From: Fimbriiglobus ruber
GTDB taxonomy: Bacteria; Planctomycetota; Planctomycetia; Gemmatales; Gemmataceae
DNA length: 64,000 bases
Assembly: GCF_002197845.1 (NCBI RefSeq)
Contig: NZ_NIDE01000002.1
Coordinates: forward strand, 806,001-870,000
Direction: 5' to 3'
Positions 5,994-26,644 of the stretch are shown one piece after another (position 1 is the first letter of the stretch; every line of letters starts with the position of its first letter). Made by a program: the position numbers and the translations under genes. The notes below the pieces were generated by a model that was not told the origin of the DNA, made no database searches, and saw only the letters and a program-made list of their open reading frames with translations.

Positions 5994-6866
5994 ATGGAAG
6001 CCACCGCCTTCGGCAGGGAAGAGCTGGAACACCTGCGAGGACTCCAAGGTGTGACCCCACCCGGGAACTGGTTCGCCGTGATCGGGATTCCGGCCCTTGT
6101 CATAGCGTGCGGTCTGGTGTTTGCTGGCCTGTCGCGACACGGCCAGTTCGCCCGGACACAGGCGGAGAAACAGTCGGGACCGCGGGCGGAGCGGGTGCCG
6201 TGGGAGGGGTATTGCATGTACGGAACGCTGGCGCTGTGTGCCGTGGGGACAGGTGCACTTTTGCTCACGCGGAGCCTTTGGAATCACTCTTTTCTTGAAA
6301 CATACACGATCCGGCTGACCTATTCGTTATCTCCCCAGCGGCAGTCCGATTACGAGAAACTTCTGAAGACTCTGGCGGGCTCGACCTGGACGCGGTTCTT
6401 TGAGATCGACACCCATCCGGAGGGGAACCACGCGTTCGCCGGGGATGTCAAACTGCGGGCGGGACTGCCGAAATACCTGGCATGCAACCTCGACGTATAC
6501 TGCCTGGAAACCGAGTCCGAACAGTATTTCCTCTTCCCCGACGGCGTCATCGCGTTTTCCGACAACAAGCTGTACCTCGTGTCGTGGGCCAAGGTGTCGC
6601 TGCGGCTCAACGACGTTGCCGGTCAATTCCGGATCAAGAAGTACCGGGACGTCATGGTCCACGGCCGGATCCGAAAGGACGGCGGGTACGATCAACGGTA
6701 TAACACGCGATTCGAACGCCAGAGTTATCAGGCGTGGGAGCCGGTCAGTAATTATGGCGTCCTGTCGTTTGGCTTCGGCCAGGATCAGGTCACCGTTTTG
6801 ACGAATGACCGCAGCCTCGCACCGCAATTCCATGCACTATTTCGCGACTGGCTCGCGAAACAGTGA
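5994..6866 (+). CDS. Hypothetical membrane protein, possibly 5'-truncated
   Basis: 290 residues from the ATG. Two hydrophobic segments (NWFAVIGIPALVIACGLVFAGL, about 23-44, and a second at about 68-92) are followed by a soluble domain of about 190 residues rich in aromatic and charged residues. No family recognised. The frame stays open upstream to 5895, and the translated upstream part (FYRVVRDGRFDIFEKGL) has protein-like composition but no ATG/GTG/TTG start. The ribosome-binding site before 5994 is weak. IS66 copy 1 ends 145 bases upstream and may have separated the gene from its promoter, or the true N-terminus may be frameshifted. Cellular role unknown. Confidence 0.6.
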   Translation: MEATAFGREELEHLRGLQGVTPPGNWFAVIGIPALVIACGLVFAGLSRHGQFARTQAEKQSGPRAERVPWEGYCMYGTLALCAVGTGALLLTRSLWNHSFLETYTIRLTYSLSPQRQSDYEKLLKTLAGSTWTRFFEIDTHPEGNHAFAGDVKLRAGLPKYLACNLDVYCLETESEQYFLFPDGVIAFSDNKLYLVSWAKVSLRLNDVAGQFRIKKYRDVMVHGRIRKDGGYDQRYNTRFERQSYQAWEPVSNYGVLSFGFGQDQVTVLTNDRSLAPQFHALFRDWLAKQ

Positions 6867-6943
6867 CGGTTCGGATACGGGGTGTGGCCGCAGTCCGCGC
6901 GTTCAGATTGAGAATCAGGGGGCTCACCGGTTCCCGCCCCGGG

Positions 6944-7684
6944 CTACATCGTCCGCCCGCCGTCGACGACGATCACCTGGCCGGTGGTGAGGGTGGTGCC
7001 GGTGGCCAGGTAAAGGACGGCGTCGGCGATGTCGTCCGGGGTGGCGGCCCGCTTGATCGCCGCCTGTTCGAGGTACTTCTCGATCTGGGCCTCGCGGCCG
7101 TCGAGCCACCGGGTCAGGATCGGGCCGGGGGCGACCGCGTTCACCCGGACGTCCGGCCCGGCCACCCGGGCGAGGCTCCTGGTCAGCGTGTTGACCGCCC
7201 CCTTGCTCGCGCAGTACGGGATCGAACTCCCCTGCCCCGACAGCCCCGCCACGCTCGACACGGTGACGATGTTCCCCTGTCGCTCCTTCAGCAGCGGCAG
7301 CGCGGCCCGGCAGCAGTAGAACGTGCCCTTCAGGTTGACCTGGAAGATCTCGTCCCAGACCTCGTCCGTGAGCGCGTCCAGGTCGGCGTGTTGGACGAAG
7401 TGCGTGGTGGCGGCGTTGTTCACGAGTACGTCGAGCCCGCCGAGTTCCGCGCCAACTCGGGCGACCATCGCCCGCACCTGCATGTCGTCGGCGATGGTCG
7501 CCTTGTGGAGCAGGACCGGGACGCCGGTCGCCTCGACGGCGGCCGCCGTCTCGCGGGCCTCCGCCTCGGACTTCGAGTAGTTGACCGCGACCGCGTACCC
7601 GAGCCGGGCGAACCGCAGGGCGCACGCGCGGCCGACCCCGGTCGCCGACCCGGTCACCAGCGCGACTTTTCGATGTGTGGACAT
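6944..7684 (-). CDS. SDR-family oxidoreductase
   Basis: 246 residues, the normal length for a classical short-chain dehydrogenase/reductase. The NAD(P)-binding motif TGSATGVGRA is near residue 11-20, the NNAAT motif near 89, the catalytic Ser in VSSVAG, and the YCASKGA motif supplies the Tyr and Lys. The family ending VDGGRTM is present. It oxidises or reduces an alcohol/carbonyl pair in the cytosol with NAD(P)H; the substrate cannot be told. A longer in-frame version exists (to 7858), but its extra N-terminus translates a dispersed repeat, so the ATG at 7684 (MSTHRKVAL) was chosen. The gene stands alone. Confidence 0.88.
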   Translation of the reverse strand: MSTHRKVALVTGSATGVGRACALRFARLGYAVAVNYSKSEAEARETAAAVEATGVPVLLHKATIADDMQVRAMVARVGAELGGLDVLVNNAATTHFVQHADLDALTDEVWDEIFQVNLKGTFYCCRAALPLLKERQGNIVTVSSVAGLSGQGSSIPYCASKGAVNTLTRSLARVAGPDVRVNAVAPGPILTRWLDGREAQIEKYLEQAAIKRAATPDDIADAVLYLATGTTLTTGQVIVVDGGRTM

Positions 7685-21953: not shown

Positions 21954-22403
21954 GTGCAGGAAGTGCCATCGCCAGAAGATCGTCTTCTTGGGGGGTTACT
22001 CGTCGGACCGACCCACTGGGAAGCGGTTGCCGAGGAGGCGGTGGTAGGCCTCGAAGCGCGGAACTTCGGAACCGAGCCCAACCGGATCTTGTTCGAGACC
22101 ATTTTGAGTCTCCGCCGAGACGGCATTCGGGTCGACTTGGTTAGCGTTCACAATCGTCTCCGACAGGAAGGACGACGCGATGAGGCCGGTGGTGCTGGGC
22201 GATTAGCCGACCTATGGATGAGCGCTTGCAGTCCGGAGGATTTGCTCAGATTGGCCGCCGGGATTCGGGGCACCTACCCGGAGTCGGCTCTGCGGACGCC
22301 CGAGAAGTTCACGCAAATAACGGTGCCGCCGGTGTGTGAGGCACCCGTTTTGGATGTGTCTTTTGAATTCGGGGCGAACGTCTCGAATTTTGACAATGGC
22401 TGA
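21954..22403 (+). CDS. Orphan DnaB N-terminal-domain protein
   Basis: 149 residues from a GTG. The first ~100 residues match the N-terminal domain of replicative helicase DnaB: PSPEDRLLGGLLVGPTHWEAV, then FGTEPNRILFETILSLRRDGIRVDLVSVHNRL. There is no RecA-like ATPase lobe, so it cannot be a helicase by itself. In full-length DnaB this domain mediates hexamer and primase contacts. The last ~45 residues look unrelated and may be out-of-frame or foreign sequence, so this may be a truncated remnant. It sits between gspE and gspF on the same strand, an odd place for a replication domain. Confidence 0.65.
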   Translation: MQEVPSPEDRLLGGLLVGPTHWEAVAEEAVVGLEARNFGTEPNRILFETILSLRRDGIRVDLVSVHNRLRQEGRRDEAGGAGRLADLWMSACSPEDLLRLAAGIRGTYPESALRTPEKFTQITVPPVCEAPVLDVSFEFGANVSNFDNG

Positions 22404-22465
22404 ATTCTGAGGTAGCCGGGTTGGACCTTCTTGAAGTGGGTCATGGAGCGAGAGGGGCAGCCCGG

Positions 22466-22711
22466 GTGAGTAAAGTCTTGCGGTTCTTGCGATGGTACGA
22501 CTCCGCCAACGAGACGATCGTCGGTGAAGTCGAATTGCGCGGGGTGGACCTGCCGACATTGCAACAACTTGTGGGCGCGCCACCAGCCGACCTGCTGTAC
22601 GACTGCTGGCCTATCCCGCACGCGCGACTGCCCGAGTTGGCTGCGTTTGTTGAGGTGCCCATCGCGTCGGAGCGACGGGCTTACTTTCTGGAAGCAAACA
22701 CAGAATCGTGA
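22466..22711 (+). CDS. Small conserved-looking protein (DUF7683-like)
   Basis: 81 residues from a GTG at 22466, with AGAGGGG 9-15 bases upstream. The sequence (VLRFLRWYDSANETIVGEVELRG, then LPTLQQLV and LYDCWPI) is compact, with no signal peptide or membrane segment. It resembles small proteins I associate with the DUF7683 label in Gemmataceae; that memory is uncertain. Function unknown. Lies between the DnaB-N gene and gspF. Confidence 0.5.
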   Translation: MSKVLRFLRWYDSANETIVGEVELRGVDLPTLQQLVGAPPADLLYDCWPIPHARLPELAAFVEVPIASERRAYFLEANTES

Positions 22712-22771: not shown

Positions 22772-23989
22772 ATGCCTGACTTTACCTATACCGCGCTCGC
22801 CAAGTCGGGCTTGAAGAGCACCGGGACACTCACCGCGGGCAGCGAGCGGGAAGCCGCCGCGGTCCTCGACTCCCGCGGGCTCTTCCCACTGCAGATCTCG
22901 ACCGCCCGCGAGGCCGGTGGCGGCCGGTTCCAGAAAGGCGTCAGCGGCCGCGACCTCGCCACCTTCTACGGCCAGCTCGCGGACTTGCTCCACTCCGGCG
23001 TGCCCCTGCTCCGCGCACTGGAACTGCTCGAACGCCAGAGCCCGAACAAGCGGCTCCAGGGCGTCCTCCGCGAAGTCCGCCTGAAAGTCGCGGACGGGAC
23101 CGGGCTCGCCCAGGCGATGGCCCTCTACCCGAAAGCGTTCGACGAACTGGCCGTCAGCATGGTCCGGGCCGGCCAGGAAGGCGGGTTCCTCGAAGACGTA
23201 CTCAAGCGGATCGCGGTGTTCGTCGAACACCAGAACGACATGAAGTCGAAGGTGATCGGGTCGCTAGCGTACCCGATCTTTCTCGGCTTCGCCGGGTTCG
23301 CGGTGGTGAACATCCTGGTGATCTTCTTCGTTCCGAAGTTCGAGCAGATCTTCATCAAGATGAAGGCCAACGGCGAACTGCCGATCCTGACGCAAGGGTT
23401 GCTCGGCCTGAGCCACTTCATGCAGTCGTGGAAAGGCATGCTGGCGGCCGTCCTCGTCGTCACCGCCGTCGTTTGGTTCCGCCGCTGGACGAGGGGGGCG
23501 GGGCGAACGTGGGCGGACGGAATGAAACTCCGCATCCCGTTATTCGGCAAGGTGTTCCTCAGCCTCTCGTTGTCCCGGTTTACGCGCATTTTGGGAACGA
23601 TGTTGCACAACGGTATCCCGATCCTGCGGGCGCTGACGATCGCCAAAGACTCGACCGGCAACCGCGTCCTCGCGGCCGCCATTGAGCAGTCCGCGGAGAA
23701 CATCACCGCCGGTCAAAAGCTCGCCGACCCGTTCCGCAAGTGTAAATACTTCCCGACCGACGTGGTCGAGATGATCGCGATCGCCGAGGAAGCGAACAGC
23801 CTGGAAAAGGTTCTGATCGACATCGCGGACAGCCTGGAGAAGCGCACCGGGCGGAATCTGGACCTGATGGTCAAACTGCTCGAACCGATCATGCTACTGA
23901 CGATGGCACTCGCTGTTCTTCTCGTCGTACTCGGGCTGCTGATGCCGGTGTTCAACCTGGGGAGTACGGTCGGCGGCGAAGGGGGATAA
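22772..23989 (+). CDS. gspF: Type II secretion/type IV pilus inner-membrane protein GspF/PilC
   Basis: 405 residues, standard length. Two homologous GspF cytoplasmic domains are each followed by transmembrane helices. The first (LATFYGQLADLLHSGVPLLRALELLE, about 62-185) leads to IGSLAYPIFLGFAGFAVVNILVIFFVP, with another helix near 222-238; the second (FTRILGTMLHNGIPILRALTIAKD, about 270-375) leads to the final helix LLTMALAVLLVVLGLLMPVFNL. The protein anchors the assembly ATPase to the inner membrane and turns ATP hydrolysis into pseudopilus growth. gspE lies upstream, separated by two small genes; gspG lies 2.2 kb downstream, beyond an ATPase/Toprim module. Confidence 0.93.
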   Translation: MPDFTYTALAKSGLKSTGTLTAGSEREAAAVLDSRGLFPLQISTAREAGGGRFQKGVSGRDLATFYGQLADLLHSGVPLLRALELLERQSPNKRLQGVLREVRLKVADGTGLAQAMALYPKAFDELAVSMVRAGQEGGFLEDVLKRIAVFVEHQNDMKSKVIGSLAYPIFLGFAGFAVVNILVIFFVPKFEQIFIKMKANGELPILTQGLLGLSHFMQSWKGMLAAVLVVTAVVWFRRWTRGAGRTWADGMKLRIPLFGKVFLSLSLSRFTRILGTMLHNGIPILRALTIAKDSTGNRVLAAAIEQSAENITAGQKLADPFRKCKYFPTDVVEMIAIAEEANSLEKVLIDIADSLEKRTGRNLDLMVKLLEPIMLLTMALAVLLVVLGLLMPVFNLGSTVGGEGG

Positions 23990-24023
23990 AGGCGAGCGGG
24001 GTGGCCATCTGCCCAACGAGAAG

Positions 24024-24076
24024 CCAAAACATCTTGAGCGAACCGCTCGCAACGCGGTACGCTCAAGATGTTTTGG
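24024..24076. terminator. Long near-perfect hairpin after gspF
   Basis: 17-bp arms CCAAAACATCTTGAGCG (24024-24040) and CGCTCAAGATGTTTTGG (24060-24076), with an inner ACCGC/GCGGT stem, fold into a 53-base hairpin. It lies 35 bases after the gspF stop and 58 before the ATPase gene, so it may end the gspF transcript and insulate the inserted module. Confidence 0.7.
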
Positions 24077-24134
24077 TCATTCGCGTCTTGCGGAGGCGTG
24101 TGCCTGCCGACGGCAAAAGCAGAGTGGATTGGCT

Positions 24135-25184
24135 ATGATTAACAAGGTCTCGATCCGTAACTACAAGTGCCTCCGGGACGTTCAAATCGAGCTGGAGCGG
24201 TTCACCGTTTTCGTTGGCCCCAACGCTTCGGGCAAGTCGAGTATCCTGCAGGCGATTGACGTTCTGTGCCGAGCATTTCGTTCGCAAAATTTGAATGTTG
24301 ACGGCGAATTAGTTCAAGCAATGAGTCGTGGGTCGAAAGATTCGATTGAGTTGGCTGCTGTGGCTGGAGGCCAATGGTATAGGTACCGTACCCGTTCCAC
24401 GGCTACCCAAATCCCTCATTTGGGACCCCCAAAAAAATGGCTTGGGGAAGGGCGGGGGATTGCGTCCAACTTGGATTCAAACGATTGGAAACAGTGGAAC
24501 GTCGGCCCAAGTGGCGGCAATCCGTTGCCGCTGTCGGCTTTACTCCGTTTGGAAGCATCCAAGCTTATTCAACCTTACCCTGCCGTCAACGCCAACAGTA
24601 CAGATATGGCATCAGACGGAACTGGCCTGCATTCCGCTTTGGCGAATATGGCGCTGAACGACCCAGATTCCTGGCAGCAATTGCAGACCGACCTACGGCG
24701 GATTATTCCCACTATTCGTCGACTGAGGCACACTAAGGCTGCCATTAATCAGCACGCTGCTCTTCTGTTCGACACGCTGGGTGCTGATTCCCTACCCGCC
24801 AATCAAGTAAGCGAGGGCACATTGCTCGTTCTCGGTCTTCTGACCGCGCTCCACGCCCCGGACCGTCCGAGCCTCGTCCTGCTCGATGACCTGGATCGCG
24901 GTCTCCACCCCAGAGCCCAGAAGGAGTTGATCTCGCTGCTGCGGGGCTTGTTGGACACGAACCCCGATCTGCAAATCATCGCCACTACGCACTCGCCTTA
25001 CATGCTCGATTGCATGGAGACGAACGAAGTCCGCATGACGTTCCTCCGCGACGACGGGGCCACGGTGTGCGCCGATCTTGTCAGTCATCCCAAATTTGAG
25101 AAATGGAAGGACGAGATGACGCCCGGCGAGATGTGGAGCCTGTTCGGGGAGAAGTGGCTCGTCGAGCAAGGGGCCGCTCCATGA
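24135..25184 (+). CDS. AAA/ABC-type ATPase (AAA_21, OLD-like), putative defence component
   Basis: 349 residues. The N-terminus INKVSIRNYKCLRDVQIEL and Walker A GPNASGKSS (about 28-36) are typical of RecF/OLD-type ATPases. An ABC-like signature follows (VSEGTLLVLGLLTAL, about 225-239), then Walker B LVLLDDLDRGLHP (Asp in place of the usual Glu) and a His loop (IIATTHSPYMLD, near 282). There is no C-terminal Toprim domain, unlike fused OLD nucleases; instead the next gene, overlapping by ATGA, supplies a Toprim-like protein. The base composition is lower in GC than the flanking gsp genes, hinting at acquisition. ATG at 24135; a TTG two codons upstream is the alternative. Confidence 0.8.
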   Translation: MINKVSIRNYKCLRDVQIELERFTVFVGPNASGKSSILQAIDVLCRAFRSQNLNVDGELVQAMSRGSKDSIELAAVAGGQWYRYRTRSTATQIPHLGPPKKWLGEGRGIASNLDSNDWKQWNVGPSGGNPLPLSALLRLEASKLIQPYPAVNANSTDMASDGTGLHSALANMALNDPDSWQQLQTDLRRIIPTIRRLRHTKAAINQHAALLFDTLGADSLPANQVSEGTLLVLGLLTALHAPDRPSLVLLDDLDRGLHPRAQKELISLLRGLLDTNPDLQIIATTHSPYMLDCMETNEVRMTFLRDDGATVCADLVSHPKFEKWKDEMTPGEMWSLFGEKWLVEQGAAP

Positions 25185-25924
25185 GTCTGCGCTTCGCCGT
25201 CGTTTACGAAGCCGAAGCAGATTTCAGGACAGCCGCCGAACTGGCAGACCGGGTATTGGTAGAAAGCATCGACTGGCTGGAAGACGAACACCTCGTTCAC
25301 CTGCGGGAATGGGTGGCCGAACTGACCGGCGGTCGGCGGCTGATGTGGAAAGCCATCAAGCAACAGGCCAAAGACGCCGGCATTCGGATGCACGGGCATT
25401 TTGACGGCGAACCGGGACTGGCGGACGCGGCTGCTGCCCGGCGAGCCATTCTTTATCTCTTGACGCAAGAGCCAGCCGTACAAGCCATTGTGCTGATTCG
25501 AGATCAGGACGATCAACCGGAGCGGCGGACGGGTTTGGAACAGGCACGGGCGCAAGACCGGAGCGGGATTCCGATCATCGTGGGGCTGGCAGTCGTGGAG
25601 AGAGAATGTTGGGTCATCAACGGGTTCGAACCGCAAGATGATGCCGAGTCAGAACGTATGGAAGCTGAGAGAAGGACTTTGGGATTCGATCCCCGGTTGC
25701 GAAGTCATGAACTCACCGCTTGCAAGGATGACGGCGCTACCCGCAGTCCCAAGCGCGTCTTGCAAAAGCTGACCGACGGCGATTTCCAACGGGAACGATG
25801 CTGCTGGACGGACACCGCGTTGGAAATTCTACGGGAGCGAGGGGTTGAGAACGGGCTTGTCGCCTACCTGCATGAGGTTCGCGACAAACTTGCACCTCTG
25901 ATCGGTCACGTTTCCAGACAATGA
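25181..25924 (+). CDS. Toprim-like (DUF4276/RloB/AriB-type) putative nuclease partner
   Basis: 247 residues, overlapping the ATPase gene by 4 bases (ATGA). The pattern is Toprim-like: an N-terminal strand with an acidic tail (FAVVYEAEAD) and a central hydrophobic strand ending in an acidic cluster (AIVLIRDQDDQ, about 105). GLAVVERECWVINGF then matches the ExExW region seen in DUF4276-type proteins. Toprim domains bind Mg and cleave nucleic acid, in OLD and Abi/PARIS-type systems when released or activated by the ATPase. Exact family not certain; the pairing with an AAA ATPase is what makes the defence role likely. Cytosolic; no signal peptide. Confidence 0.68.
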   Translation: MSLRFAVVYEAEADFRTAAELADRVLVESIDWLEDEHLVHLREWVAELTGGRRLMWKAIKQQAKDAGIRMHGHFDGEPGLADAAAARRAILYLLTQEPAVQAIVLIRDQDDQPERRTGLEQARAQDRSGIPIIVGLAVVERECWVINGFEPQDDAESERMEAERRTLGFDPRLRSHELTACKDDGATRSPKRVLQKLTDGDFQRERCCWTDTALEILRERGVENGLVAYLHEVRDKLAPLIGHVSRQ

Positions 25925-26227
25925 ACATGGGCAACGAGAGCGGGGGATCAGCCGTCTGATTTCGCCATATCATCAGTTTTGAAAGCTAGTTGCATTCGCT
26001 GAAGCGACACGAAAGAGGGCCCGTGGATGTCCGCCGGGGAAACCGCCCGGTCGTCTCGCACAGACTCTCTGGCGGTTACCCGCAATAAACCCTCTTGCGA
26101 GTGAAATTTCCCGCGGTAAGATGTCGGTCCCGCCGCCCAGCACACCTTCCTCATTTTCTCTCACCGCCTATTAACTCCCCCCAGCTTATAGTTTCCTGTA
26201 AGGACATCGCCGCGTAAGGAGTTTCCC
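25925..26227. other. Intergenic region between the ATPase/Toprim module and gspG
   Basis: About 300 bases. It probably holds the promoter for the gspG-to-gspM operon. GTAAGGAG just before 26228 is a strong ribosome-binding site. No transposon ends recognised. Confidence 0.4.
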
Positions 26228-26644
26228 ATGATCGTTCGCCAAACTGCACGCCGCCTGCCGGCCCGCACGCGATCCGCGTTCACGCTGCTCGAAGTGCTCG
26301 TCGTCGTGGCCATCCTCGTGATCCTCGCCAGCGTCTCGACGTTTGCCACCGTCAGCTATCTGGAACGGGCCAAGCGGAGCGAGGCCAACCTCAAGATGCA
26401 AAAAGTCGAAACGGCCGCGAAAGCGTTTTACACGCAATACAGTTACTGGCCGTCGTCGCCACAGGATCTGGTTCAGATGGGGCCGGATGGTACCGCCCCG
26501 TTCCTCGAAGGTGGCGCCAGCGCGATTTCCGACCCGTGGGGCGCGCCGTTTACGCTCGCGGAAGAACAAGATTCGACGGGGTCCATCCGCGTAAGAATCT
26601 ATTCGTCTGGCAGCGGAAACCAAATGGCGTGGCCTCTTAGATAA
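26228..26644 (+). CDS. gspG: Type II secretion major pseudopilin GspG-like
   Basis: 138 residues. A basic leader ends before the prepilin peptidase motif SAFTLLEVLVVVAILVILASV, with Glu at mature position 5 and the hydrophobic helix following. A short C-terminal domain carries features of GspG (FYTQYSYWPSSPQDLVQ, SDPWGAPF), which in GspG order the DPWGxP loop near bound calcium. It forms the shaft of the pseudopilus after cleavage and N-methylation by GspO. First gene of the run gspG-H-I-J-K. Confidence 0.9.
   Translation: MIVRQTARRLPARTRSAFTLLEVLVVVAILVILASVSTFATVSYLERAKRSEANLKMQKVETAAKAFYTQYSYWPSSPQDLVQMGPDGTAPFLEGGASAISDPWGAPFTLAEEQDSTGSIRVRIYSSGSGNQMAWPLR

What the first reader, a model, noticed from the sequence alone, without database searches (positions are those of the whole stretch)
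24024..25924. ATPase + Toprim-like gene pair embedded inside the type II secretion cluster: candidate defence system
An OLD/AAA_21-type ATPase (Walker A GPNASGKSS, His loop TTHSP, Asp in place of the Walker B Glu) overlaps by ATGA a Toprim-like protein with an acidic strand end and a DQDD cluster. Known relatives of this plan are OLD, AbiL and PARIS-type phage-defence modules, but the split pair here does not match one clearly. It lies between gspF and gspG, behind a 53-base hairpin, with lower GC, as if dropped into the operon. This is the best candidate in the window for an under-described system.
Basis: partly seen in the sequence, partly recalled or inferred. Interest (0 to 1): 0.72.

Follow-up and report, generated by a model that had tools for sequence, protein, structure and literature searches.

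The report
ATPase–nuclease defence pair, sometimes inside BREX
Two overlapping genes dropped into a planctomycete's secretion operon encode an ATPase and a Toprim-like putative nuclease; relatives of the pair stand alone or sit inside the BREX anti-phage system, so it is most likely a mobile defence unit, though no function has been tested.

Summary
Window 24135-25184 encodes an OLD/PtuA-type ABC ATPase; 25181-25924, overlapping by ATGA, a 247-aa protein without a significant family hit. An ATPase match lies just upstream of the second gene in 77 of 80 named loci (6 of these matches are partial). The second protein has a confident model (pLDDT 91) and most of the OLD two-metal residue order (E10-x3-D14, D108-x-D110, E142, K191), near-invariant in 73 sequences; fold searches alone are inconclusive. 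The pair is an insertion: absent downstream of gspF in 29 relatives, GC3 62-65% against 86-90% for gspE/gspF. Main new fact: in 6 of 80 loci (5 MAGs) the pair lies in a BREX operon, and these copies mix with others in the tree. Nearest named family: PADLOC's candidate HEC-01 (AAA_21 + DUF4276). The ATPase matches HEC-01A; the window partner matches no HEC-01B model, though its family does weakly and by profile comparison; Walker B is Asp-Asp here. Best reading: a mobile two-gene abortive-type defence module, used alone or as a BREX accessory. Function is inferred. New variant of a known kind.

The parts
24135..25184 (+). ABC ATPase gene (OLD/PtuA type, 349 aa); Walker A GPNASGKSS, SEGT signature, Walker B LLDD, H-loop TTHSP, C-terminal GEMWSLFGEKW motif
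   Evidence: Pfam AAA_21 1.7e-32; PADLOC HEC-01A 6e-35; model pLDDT 92.8, VIA-align Z 22.4, rmsd 3.5 over 298 residues to retron PtuA 9nnk_C
25181..25924 (+). Toprim-like putative metal-dependent nuclease gene (247 aa); E10-x3-D14, D108-x-D110, R141-E142, K191
   Evidence: no Pfam or PADLOC hit at E <= 1; model pLDDT 91; near-invariant residues; family profile against HEC-01B/DUF4276 prob 90%, E 1.6e-6
25181..25184 (+). ATGA stop/start overlap of the two genes (likely translational coupling)
   Evidence: by the start-codon rule the genes overlap by 4 nt in 25 and by 8 nt in 40 of 77 relatives
24024..24076 (.). 53-nt hairpin between gspF and the ATPase; not part of the conserved module, role unknown (terminator, operator or insertion scar)
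23990..26227 (.). inserted lower-GC segment between gspF and gspG
   Evidence: GC 57.1%; 2238 bp here against 3-262 bp in 21 of 22 relatives and 748 bp in one; pair absent downstream of gspF in 29 relatives

Best explanation
It is a horizontally acquired two-gene anti-phage module. The first gene makes an OLD/PtuA-class ABC ATPase that most likely acts as sensor and keeper. The second makes a Toprim-like, probably two-metal, nuclease that most likely acts as effector. By analogy with PARIS, the ATPase would hold the nuclease inactive in an ATP-bound assembly until an infection cue (for example a phage anti-restriction protein, or DNA or nucleotide disturbance) releases it; the nuclease then cuts DNA or tRNA and stops phage growth, probably at the cost of the cell. 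The Asp-Asp Walker B suggests slow ATP turnover, so ATP may work as a lock rather than a motor. Relatives of the unit are found alone or inside BREX operons. Shown here: the genes, their constant pairing, the insertion, the conserved residues and the BREX embedding of some relatives. Inferred: nuclease activity, the sensor/effector split, ATP turnover, the trigger, the target and the defence role.
For: Of the other 3, L045 and L109 begin at a contig end and L094 keeps only the first ~90 residues of the ATPase. The two proteins diverge together (distance correlation 0.92 over 68 pairs, 0 of 999 permutations as high). ATPase: retron PtuA structures lead, Z up to 22.4. Partner: strand 3-9, helix, strand 100-108, helix, strand 132-137, then helices, with E10 72/73, D14 72/73, D108, D110 and E142 73/73, K191 72/73, in the order of the OLD site E400, E404, D455, D457, E508 (first helix of the helical domain), K562 (later helix) (PMC6755086, passages read). 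Defence: BrxC, PglX, PglZ and BrxL by PADLOC around the pair in L032; BREX genes beside the pair in 6 of 80 loci. Patchy spread: 13 of 61 same-family genomes including this one, 0 of 38 others. Insertion. Published frame: TOPRIM-linked OLD-ABC dyads in BREX as presumed backup effectors (PMC12839542, passages); PARIS holds and releases a Toprim tRNase (PMC12409363, passages).
Against: No function was measured. Foldseek gave no PDB or viral match at E <= 0.001 for the partner. In VIA-align the top row is an uncharacterised protein (2p62, Z 8.9) and the OLD Toprim rows (Z 7.3, 6.7) are tied with lumazine synthases (up to 7.6) and an archaeal riboflavin synthase (7.7), in the range the tool warns may mean only a common arrangement. 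The OLD metal ligand T506 has no conserved counterpart (position 140 varies), and the spacing from E10 to DxD is 98 residues against 55. The window partner has no HEC-01B, RloB, Toprim or DUF4276 hit. BREX embedding is a minority (6 of 80 loci, 5 MAGs, all labelled planctomycete). In Microcoleus/Tychonema-type cyanobacteria the pair sits in shared synteny, which also fits a long-kept non-defence role. No copy was found in phage or plasmid records, or in viral contigs by one short pattern.
Confidence: 0.7

Rival explanations
1. A toxin-antitoxin or other addiction module: the Toprim-like protein is a nucleic-acid-cutting toxin, the ATPase its neutraliser, kept for selfish maintenance rather than for phage defence.
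For: Two overlapping genes with an antitoxin-like first gene; the Pfam name of the ATPase family mentions a type IV toxin; 74 of 80 loci show no full BREX gene on the stretch held.
Against: BREX embedding in 6 of 80; the best family and structure matches of the ATPase are mostly defence ATPases; no plasmid copy found.
Confidence: 0.15
2. A DNA-repair or chromosome-maintenance unit of RecF/RecR or SMC type (ABC ATPase plus Toprim protein), not antiviral.
For: The ATPase aligns with SMC heads at Z up to 20.6, tied with Septu PtuA (20.2-20.7), and with Rad50 up to 20.2; it also hits RecF; syntenic retention in Microcoleus-type cyanobacteria.
Against: Patchy presence within one family (13 of 61 genomes), compositional mismatch and insertion in an unrelated operon, BREX embedding; retron PtuA rows lead the structural list and PtuA leads the sequence profile search.
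Confidence: 0.1
3. A component or regulator of the type II secretion cluster in which it lies.
For: Position between gspF and gspG, same strand.
Against: Absent downstream of gspF in 29 relatives; no gspE/F/G/H hit in the 13 extended loci of relatives with a copy or piece of the pair.
Confidence: 0.02

Closest known systems
HEC-01 (PADLOC-DB candidate system; HEC-01A ATPase + HEC-01B)
   Same: Two-gene plan with an AAA_21 ATPase and a small partner with E-x3-D/E and E-x-W; ATPase hit 6e-35; partner family against 12 HEC-01B proteins prob 90%, E 1.6e-6; one of these, from this genome, is DUF4276 above cut-off
   Different: Window partner not hit by any HEC-01B model; ATPases beside HEC-01B genes read Glu-Glu (EEPE) at Walker B in 9 of 15 loci, FEHPE in one, motif not found in 5, here Asp-Asp in 70 of 72; the comparison puts D110, not D108, on the first Asp of HEC-01B's DAE and stops before K191
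PARIS (AriA/AriB; split OLD-type ATPase and Toprim tRNase)
   Same: Split ATPase + Toprim plan; linked to anti-restriction defence (PMC12409363, PMC12839542, passages)
   Different: The partner hits no PADLOC model at E <= 1; the ATPase profile matches PtuA (1e-24) better than AriA (3.7e-8)
Septu / retron effector PtuAB
   Same: Closest solved structures of the ATPase (Z 22.4)
   Different: PtuB is an HNH nuclease (PMC12409363, passage); here the partner is Toprim-like
OLD nucleases and Gabija GajA
   Same: ATPase-Toprim combination and most of the active-site order (PMC6755086, passages)
   Different: One polypeptide there, two genes here; T506 not matched; the neighbours here are secretion genes, not a helicase
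MADS components MAD3/MAD4
   Same: ATPase hits NCBIfam MAD3 at 1.3e-33; 7 of 58 partner relatives hit mad4, best 6.3e-6
   Different: Far below the MAD3 cut-off (116.8 against 420 bits); the neighbours scanned here are secretion genes
TOPRIM-linked OLD-ABC dyads of BREX operons
   Same: Some relatives lie between pglX and pglZ, as the published kind leads one to expect (PMC12839542, passages)
   Different: Most members, the window copy included, show no BREX genes nearby; whether this subfamily is in that paper's tables was not seen

Membership tests
HEC-01 (PADLOC) | ATPase matches HEC-01A models | tested here: met
   best 6e-35; the output gives no curated threshold
HEC-01 (PADLOC) | partner matches HEC-01B models | tested here: not met
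   window partner: no hit at E <= 1; 8 of 58 family members hit one model, best 8.2e-5; profile-profile prob 90% shows distant kinship, not membership
PARIS | AriB-type Toprim partner | tested here: inconclusive
   no PADLOC hit of any kind at E <= 1 for P0002; I did not check which AriB models the library holds
OLD family nuclease (class 1/2) | ATPase and Toprim in one polypeptide | tested here: not met
   two genes with ATGA overlap
OLD-type Toprim active site | E-x3-acid, DxD, T-x-E in the first helix after the core, distal Lys | tested here: inconclusive
   E10, D14, D108, D110, E142, K191 near-invariant in 73, but the T506 position varies; reference residues from PMC6755086; spatial clustering in the model was not measured
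Toprim fold | fold match to solved Toprim domains | tested here: inconclusive
   VIA-align 6nk8_B Z 7.3, rmsd 5.2 over 171; 6njv Z 6.7, rmsd 5.3 over 180; lumazine synthases score alike; no Foldseek hit at E <= 0.001
Septu | HNH nuclease PtuB as partner | tested here: not met
   no HNH hit by P0002 in Pfam or PADLOC at E <= 1; conserved residues are E, D, DxD, E, K
MADS MAD3 | score over NCBIfam cut-off of 420 bits | tested here: not met
   116.8 bits
RloB | profile kinship to RloB | tested here: inconclusive
   4 of 58 family members hit PF13707, best 0.0018; hhalign prob 2%
BREX accessory module | located within a BREX operon | tested here: not met
   window copy lies among gsp genes; own genome has no match to PglZ model PDLC02566; 6 of 80 related loci do lie in BREX
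Anti-phage defence system | protects cells from phage | not testable with these tools
   needs plaque assays

The most novel reading that the evidence does not exclude
This is a distinct, unnamed class of split OLD-ABC/Toprim immunity whose Asp-Asp ATPase is an ATP-held lock rather than a motor, and which moves between stand-alone life and BREX operons, where it guards BREX and fires when phages disable it. About a fifth of the same-family genomes sampled and many cyanobacteria would carry it, although the effector of the window copy is invisible to the family models tried here.
Probability: 0.3. Interest if true: 0.65.

Novelty: new variant of a known kind. Interest (0 to 1): 0.47.

Why it matters
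It gives a defined, testable two-gene unit that occurs both inside and outside BREX in related copies. One gene pair could therefore show directly whether such ATPase-Toprim dyads are independent immune systems or guards of BREX. It also points to a gap in defence annotation: the window's second protein has no Pfam or PADLOC hit, although the pair was found in planctomycetes, cyanobacteria (40 of the 80 loci by record title), myxobacteria, acidobacteria, Chloroflexota and others (many records are MAGs).

Tried and rejected
Secretion role: rejected; the pair is absent downstream of gspF in 29 relatives (these are the 29 best of the relatives' gspF matches, 30 loci being fetched with the window's own; the search covered 59 genomes, 58 with a match). 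In 7 of the 29 gspG was not found on the stretch held. Hairpin as a conserved regulatory part: rejected (3 of 73 relatives; no DNA similarity outside the two genes beyond 4 nt). Hairpin as a dispersed repeat: rejected, single copy. Insertion-site duplications: the repeat finder showed none flanking the pair. Viral, phage and plasmid carriers: none found (the viral scan used one short pattern). Sequence search of solved structures with the partner: P0002 alone gave none; the 58-row profile gave only weak hits without a Toprim among them, best E 0.38. Foldseek on the partner: no match at E <= 0.001; the viral top hit is annotated RloB-like (E 6.2e-3), but a profile comparison with RloB failed (prob 2%). 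P0002 had single weak hits in NCBIfam (cobM_cbiF, E 0.015) and PHROGs (E 0.2), taken as chance. No AriB, AbiL or GajA row is in the VIA-align list; by the tool's note this is inconclusive. Recurrent neighbours other than BREX: clusters that look like shared synteny within cyanobacterial groups, plus families scattered at varying distances. Papers: HEC-01 occurs in 5 papers of the library, of which one is about phages (PMC12724379, one listing of the name, passage read); I found no description of its function in that search. The ABC-ATPase classification paper that others cite (PMC7544218) is not held and supplements could not be read, so this subfamily may already have a name there.

Rows dropped: of the 77 paired loci, 72 gave a full-length partner and 71 a full-length ATPase; with the window these are the 73 and 72. 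Alignments A3 and A4 hold 58 and 51 of them, chosen by me by eye to thin near-duplicates; the tree uses the 68 with both genes complete. The 80 loci are the best 80 of 90 found. The gene-gap figures are estimates from tblastn ends. The HEC-01B alignment (A5) uses 12 and the RloB alignment (A6) 9 of the 15 loci fetched for each.

Full report
WHAT IS THERE. The window lies in a 12.36-Mb genome. It is probably of the planctomycete genus Fimbriiglobus: the same-genus genome G001 has its copy on a 3959-base contig, the same length as the contig of L047, titled Fimbriiglobus sp.; this is an inference. Between gspF (22772-23989) and gspG (26228-26644) lie two genes on the same strand: an ABC ATPase at 24135-25184 and a second gene at 25181-25924, sharing ATGA. 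Pfam finds T2SSE, T2SSF and, weakly, T2SSG and pilin-type motifs in the neighbours. A 53-nt hairpin with one mismatch lies 34 nt after the gspF stop.

IT IS AN INSERTION. GC3 of the two genes is 64.6% and 62.1%, against 90.5% for gspE and 86.2% for gspF; gspG is intermediate at 71.9%. In 29 relatives neither gene is on the stretch held downstream of gspF. In the 22 of these where gspG was found, the gspF-gspG gap is 3-262 bp in 21 and 748 bp in one; here it is 2238 bp. DNA similarity to relatives begins at 24131-24135 and ends by 25912, inside the second gene. Relatives of the second protein occur in 13 of 61 same-family genomes including this one, two of them only as short pieces, and in 0 of 38 genomes outside the family. 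The copy of the same-genus genome G001 is less like the window's (53%) than several from other genera (up to 67-68%), which fits horizontal spread.

THE PAIR IS CONSTANT. In the 10 other relative genomes with a substantial match the ATPase lies directly upstream in all 10. In 80 named loci (the best 80 of 90) an ATPase match lies within 600 bp upstream in 77; in 6 of the 77 this match is under 240 aa, at contig ends or in possibly broken copies. Of the 3 others, two begin at a contig end and one, L094, keeps only the first ~90 residues of the ATPase. The genes overlap by 4 nt in 25 and by 8 nt in 40 of the 77 by the start-codon rule used. Distances of the two proteins agree (r = 0.92 over 68 pairs, 0 of 999 permutations as high).

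THE ATPASE. AAA_21 at 1.7e-32; HEC-01A at 6e-35 is the best PADLOC row. The model (pLDDT 92.8) matches retron PtuA best, Z up to 22.4; Septu PtuA (20.2-20.7) is tied with SMC heads (up to 20.6). PtuA also leads the profile search of solved structures, 1e-24, against 3.7e-8 for AriA. Walker A K34 and H286 are invariant in 72 sequences; the residue after the Walker B Asp is Asp in 70 of 72. ATPases beside HEC-01B genes in relatives read EEPE there in 9 of 15 loci, FEHPE in one, and gave no match to the pattern in 5. Slow turnover is inferred from this, not measured.

THE PARTNER. It has no significant family hit of its own. The model (pLDDT 91) is a small alpha/beta domain followed by helices. 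Six positions are near-invariant in 73 sequences: E10, D14, D108, D110, E142, K191. They come in the order of the BpOLD two-metal site E400, E404, D455, D457, E508 and K562, the last two lying in helices of the helical domain (PMC6755086, passages), as E142 and K191 lie in helices of the model. Against this, the OLD ligand T506 has no conserved counterpart (position 140 varies), and the spacing from E10 to DxD is longer (98 against 55). OLD Toprim domains are among the structural matches (Z 7.3 and 6.7), but an uncharacterised protein leads (2p62, Z 8.9) and lumazine synthases score alike; Foldseek found nothing significant. Some family members hit HEC-01B (8 of 58, best 8.2e-5), mad4 (7 of 58, best 6.3e-6) and RloB (4 of 58, best 0.0018). 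A profile comparison with 12 HEC-01B proteins gives prob 90%, E 1.6e-6; it sets E10-x3-D14 on E-x3-E and E142-x-W144 on E-N-W, and D110 on the first Asp of DAE, so the DxD and DxE motifs are two residues out of register. RloB gives prob 2%. A HEC-01B protein from this same genome is DUF4276 above cut-off. So the partner is a distant relative of HEC-01B/DUF4276 with Toprim-like features.

THE BREX LINK. In L032 the order is BrxC - two unassigned ORFs - PglX - ATPase - partner - PglZ - BrxL, with 4-nt overlaps joining PglX to the ATPase and the ATPase to the partner. PADLOC scores there are BrxC 6e-202, PglX 0, PglZ 8e-286 and BrxL 6e-290. By tblastn with PglX, PglZ and BrxL of L032 and BrxC of L088, BREX genes flank the pair in 6 of 80 loci: PglX before and PglZ after it in L031, L032, L033, L044 and L088, and PglZ-BrxL after it in L040, whose contig begins inside the ATPase. 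L044 and L088 are from one MAG. L036 has only a short PglX-like piece. Contig ends hide some neighbourhoods, so 6 may be too low. On the tree the six BREX copies, the window's and 11 others share one starred group, and BREX copies pair with non-BREX ones (L040 with L042, L033 with L036). The window ATPase is 74% identical to that of L032. The window genome has no match to the PglZ model PDLC02566.

HOW IT MOST LIKELY WORKS. In PARIS the ATPase holds the Toprim tRNase and releases it when a phage protein such as Ocr is sensed (PMC12409363, passages). A 2026 survey reports TOPRIM-linked OLD-ABC dyads in BREX operons as presumed backup suicidal effectors (PMC12839542, passages). The pair here fits that plan: sensor/keeper plus nuclease, self-contained, and found within BREX in some relatives. 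What is shown is anatomy, pairing, insertion and context; enzymatic activity, trigger, target and defence are inferred.

WHAT IS NEW. The kind is known (split OLD-ABC + Toprim). This branch fails the tests made here for Septu, MADS MAD3 and, for the partner, HEC-01; PARIS could not be settled. It has its own Walker B and its own partner signature. I rate it a new variant. Interest is moderate: the mechanism class is not surprising, but related copies inside and outside BREX make a current question (autonomous systems or BREX guards?) testable.

Noticed in passing
window 21954-22711: Two more small lower-GC genes sit between gspE and gspF: a DnaB N-terminal-domain protein (PF00772, 2.2e-12) and a DUF7683 protein (2.8e-17). 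In 23 of 25 relatives measured the gspE-gspF gap is 6-229 bp, in two 749 and 969 bp, against 843 bp here by the same estimate, so the gsp operon looks to have taken insertions at two junctions.
   Followed up: partly
G000:C17:419219-419842 (L150) and G000:C2:247648-247953: The same genome carries a HEC-01B/DUF4276 gene (1.0e-38; DUF4276 3.3e-12), with an IEEPE-type ATPase motif on the same strand of the locus, plus a partial HEC-01B match elsewhere (2.1e-13).
   Followed up: partly
G000:C2:643197-645218 and G000:C17:866617-868635: Two strong BrxL-model matches in this genome although PglZ model PDLC02566 is absent; the BrxL model also rings in 12 of 14 control genomes, so they may be other proteins.
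   Followed up: no
L094 around 6479-7488: Cyanobacterial copy in which only about the first 90 residues of the ATPase are matched, running straight into the partner, whose first 9 residues are not matched: a broken copy, or an effector left without its keeper.
   Followed up: partly
L054, L062, L068, L070, L071, L073, L076, L084, L086: In these Microcoleus/Tychonema-type cyanobacteria the pair shares flanking genes across genomes, which suggests long vertical retention rather than rapid turnover.
   Followed up: no
L035, L079, L102 upstream of the ATPase: Three of 73 relatives also have strong hairpins (arms of 31, 23 and 12) within 150 nt upstream of the ATPase, different in sequence from the window's; in 300 random window pieces the 95% point of the score was 9 and the maximum 19.
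   Followed up: no
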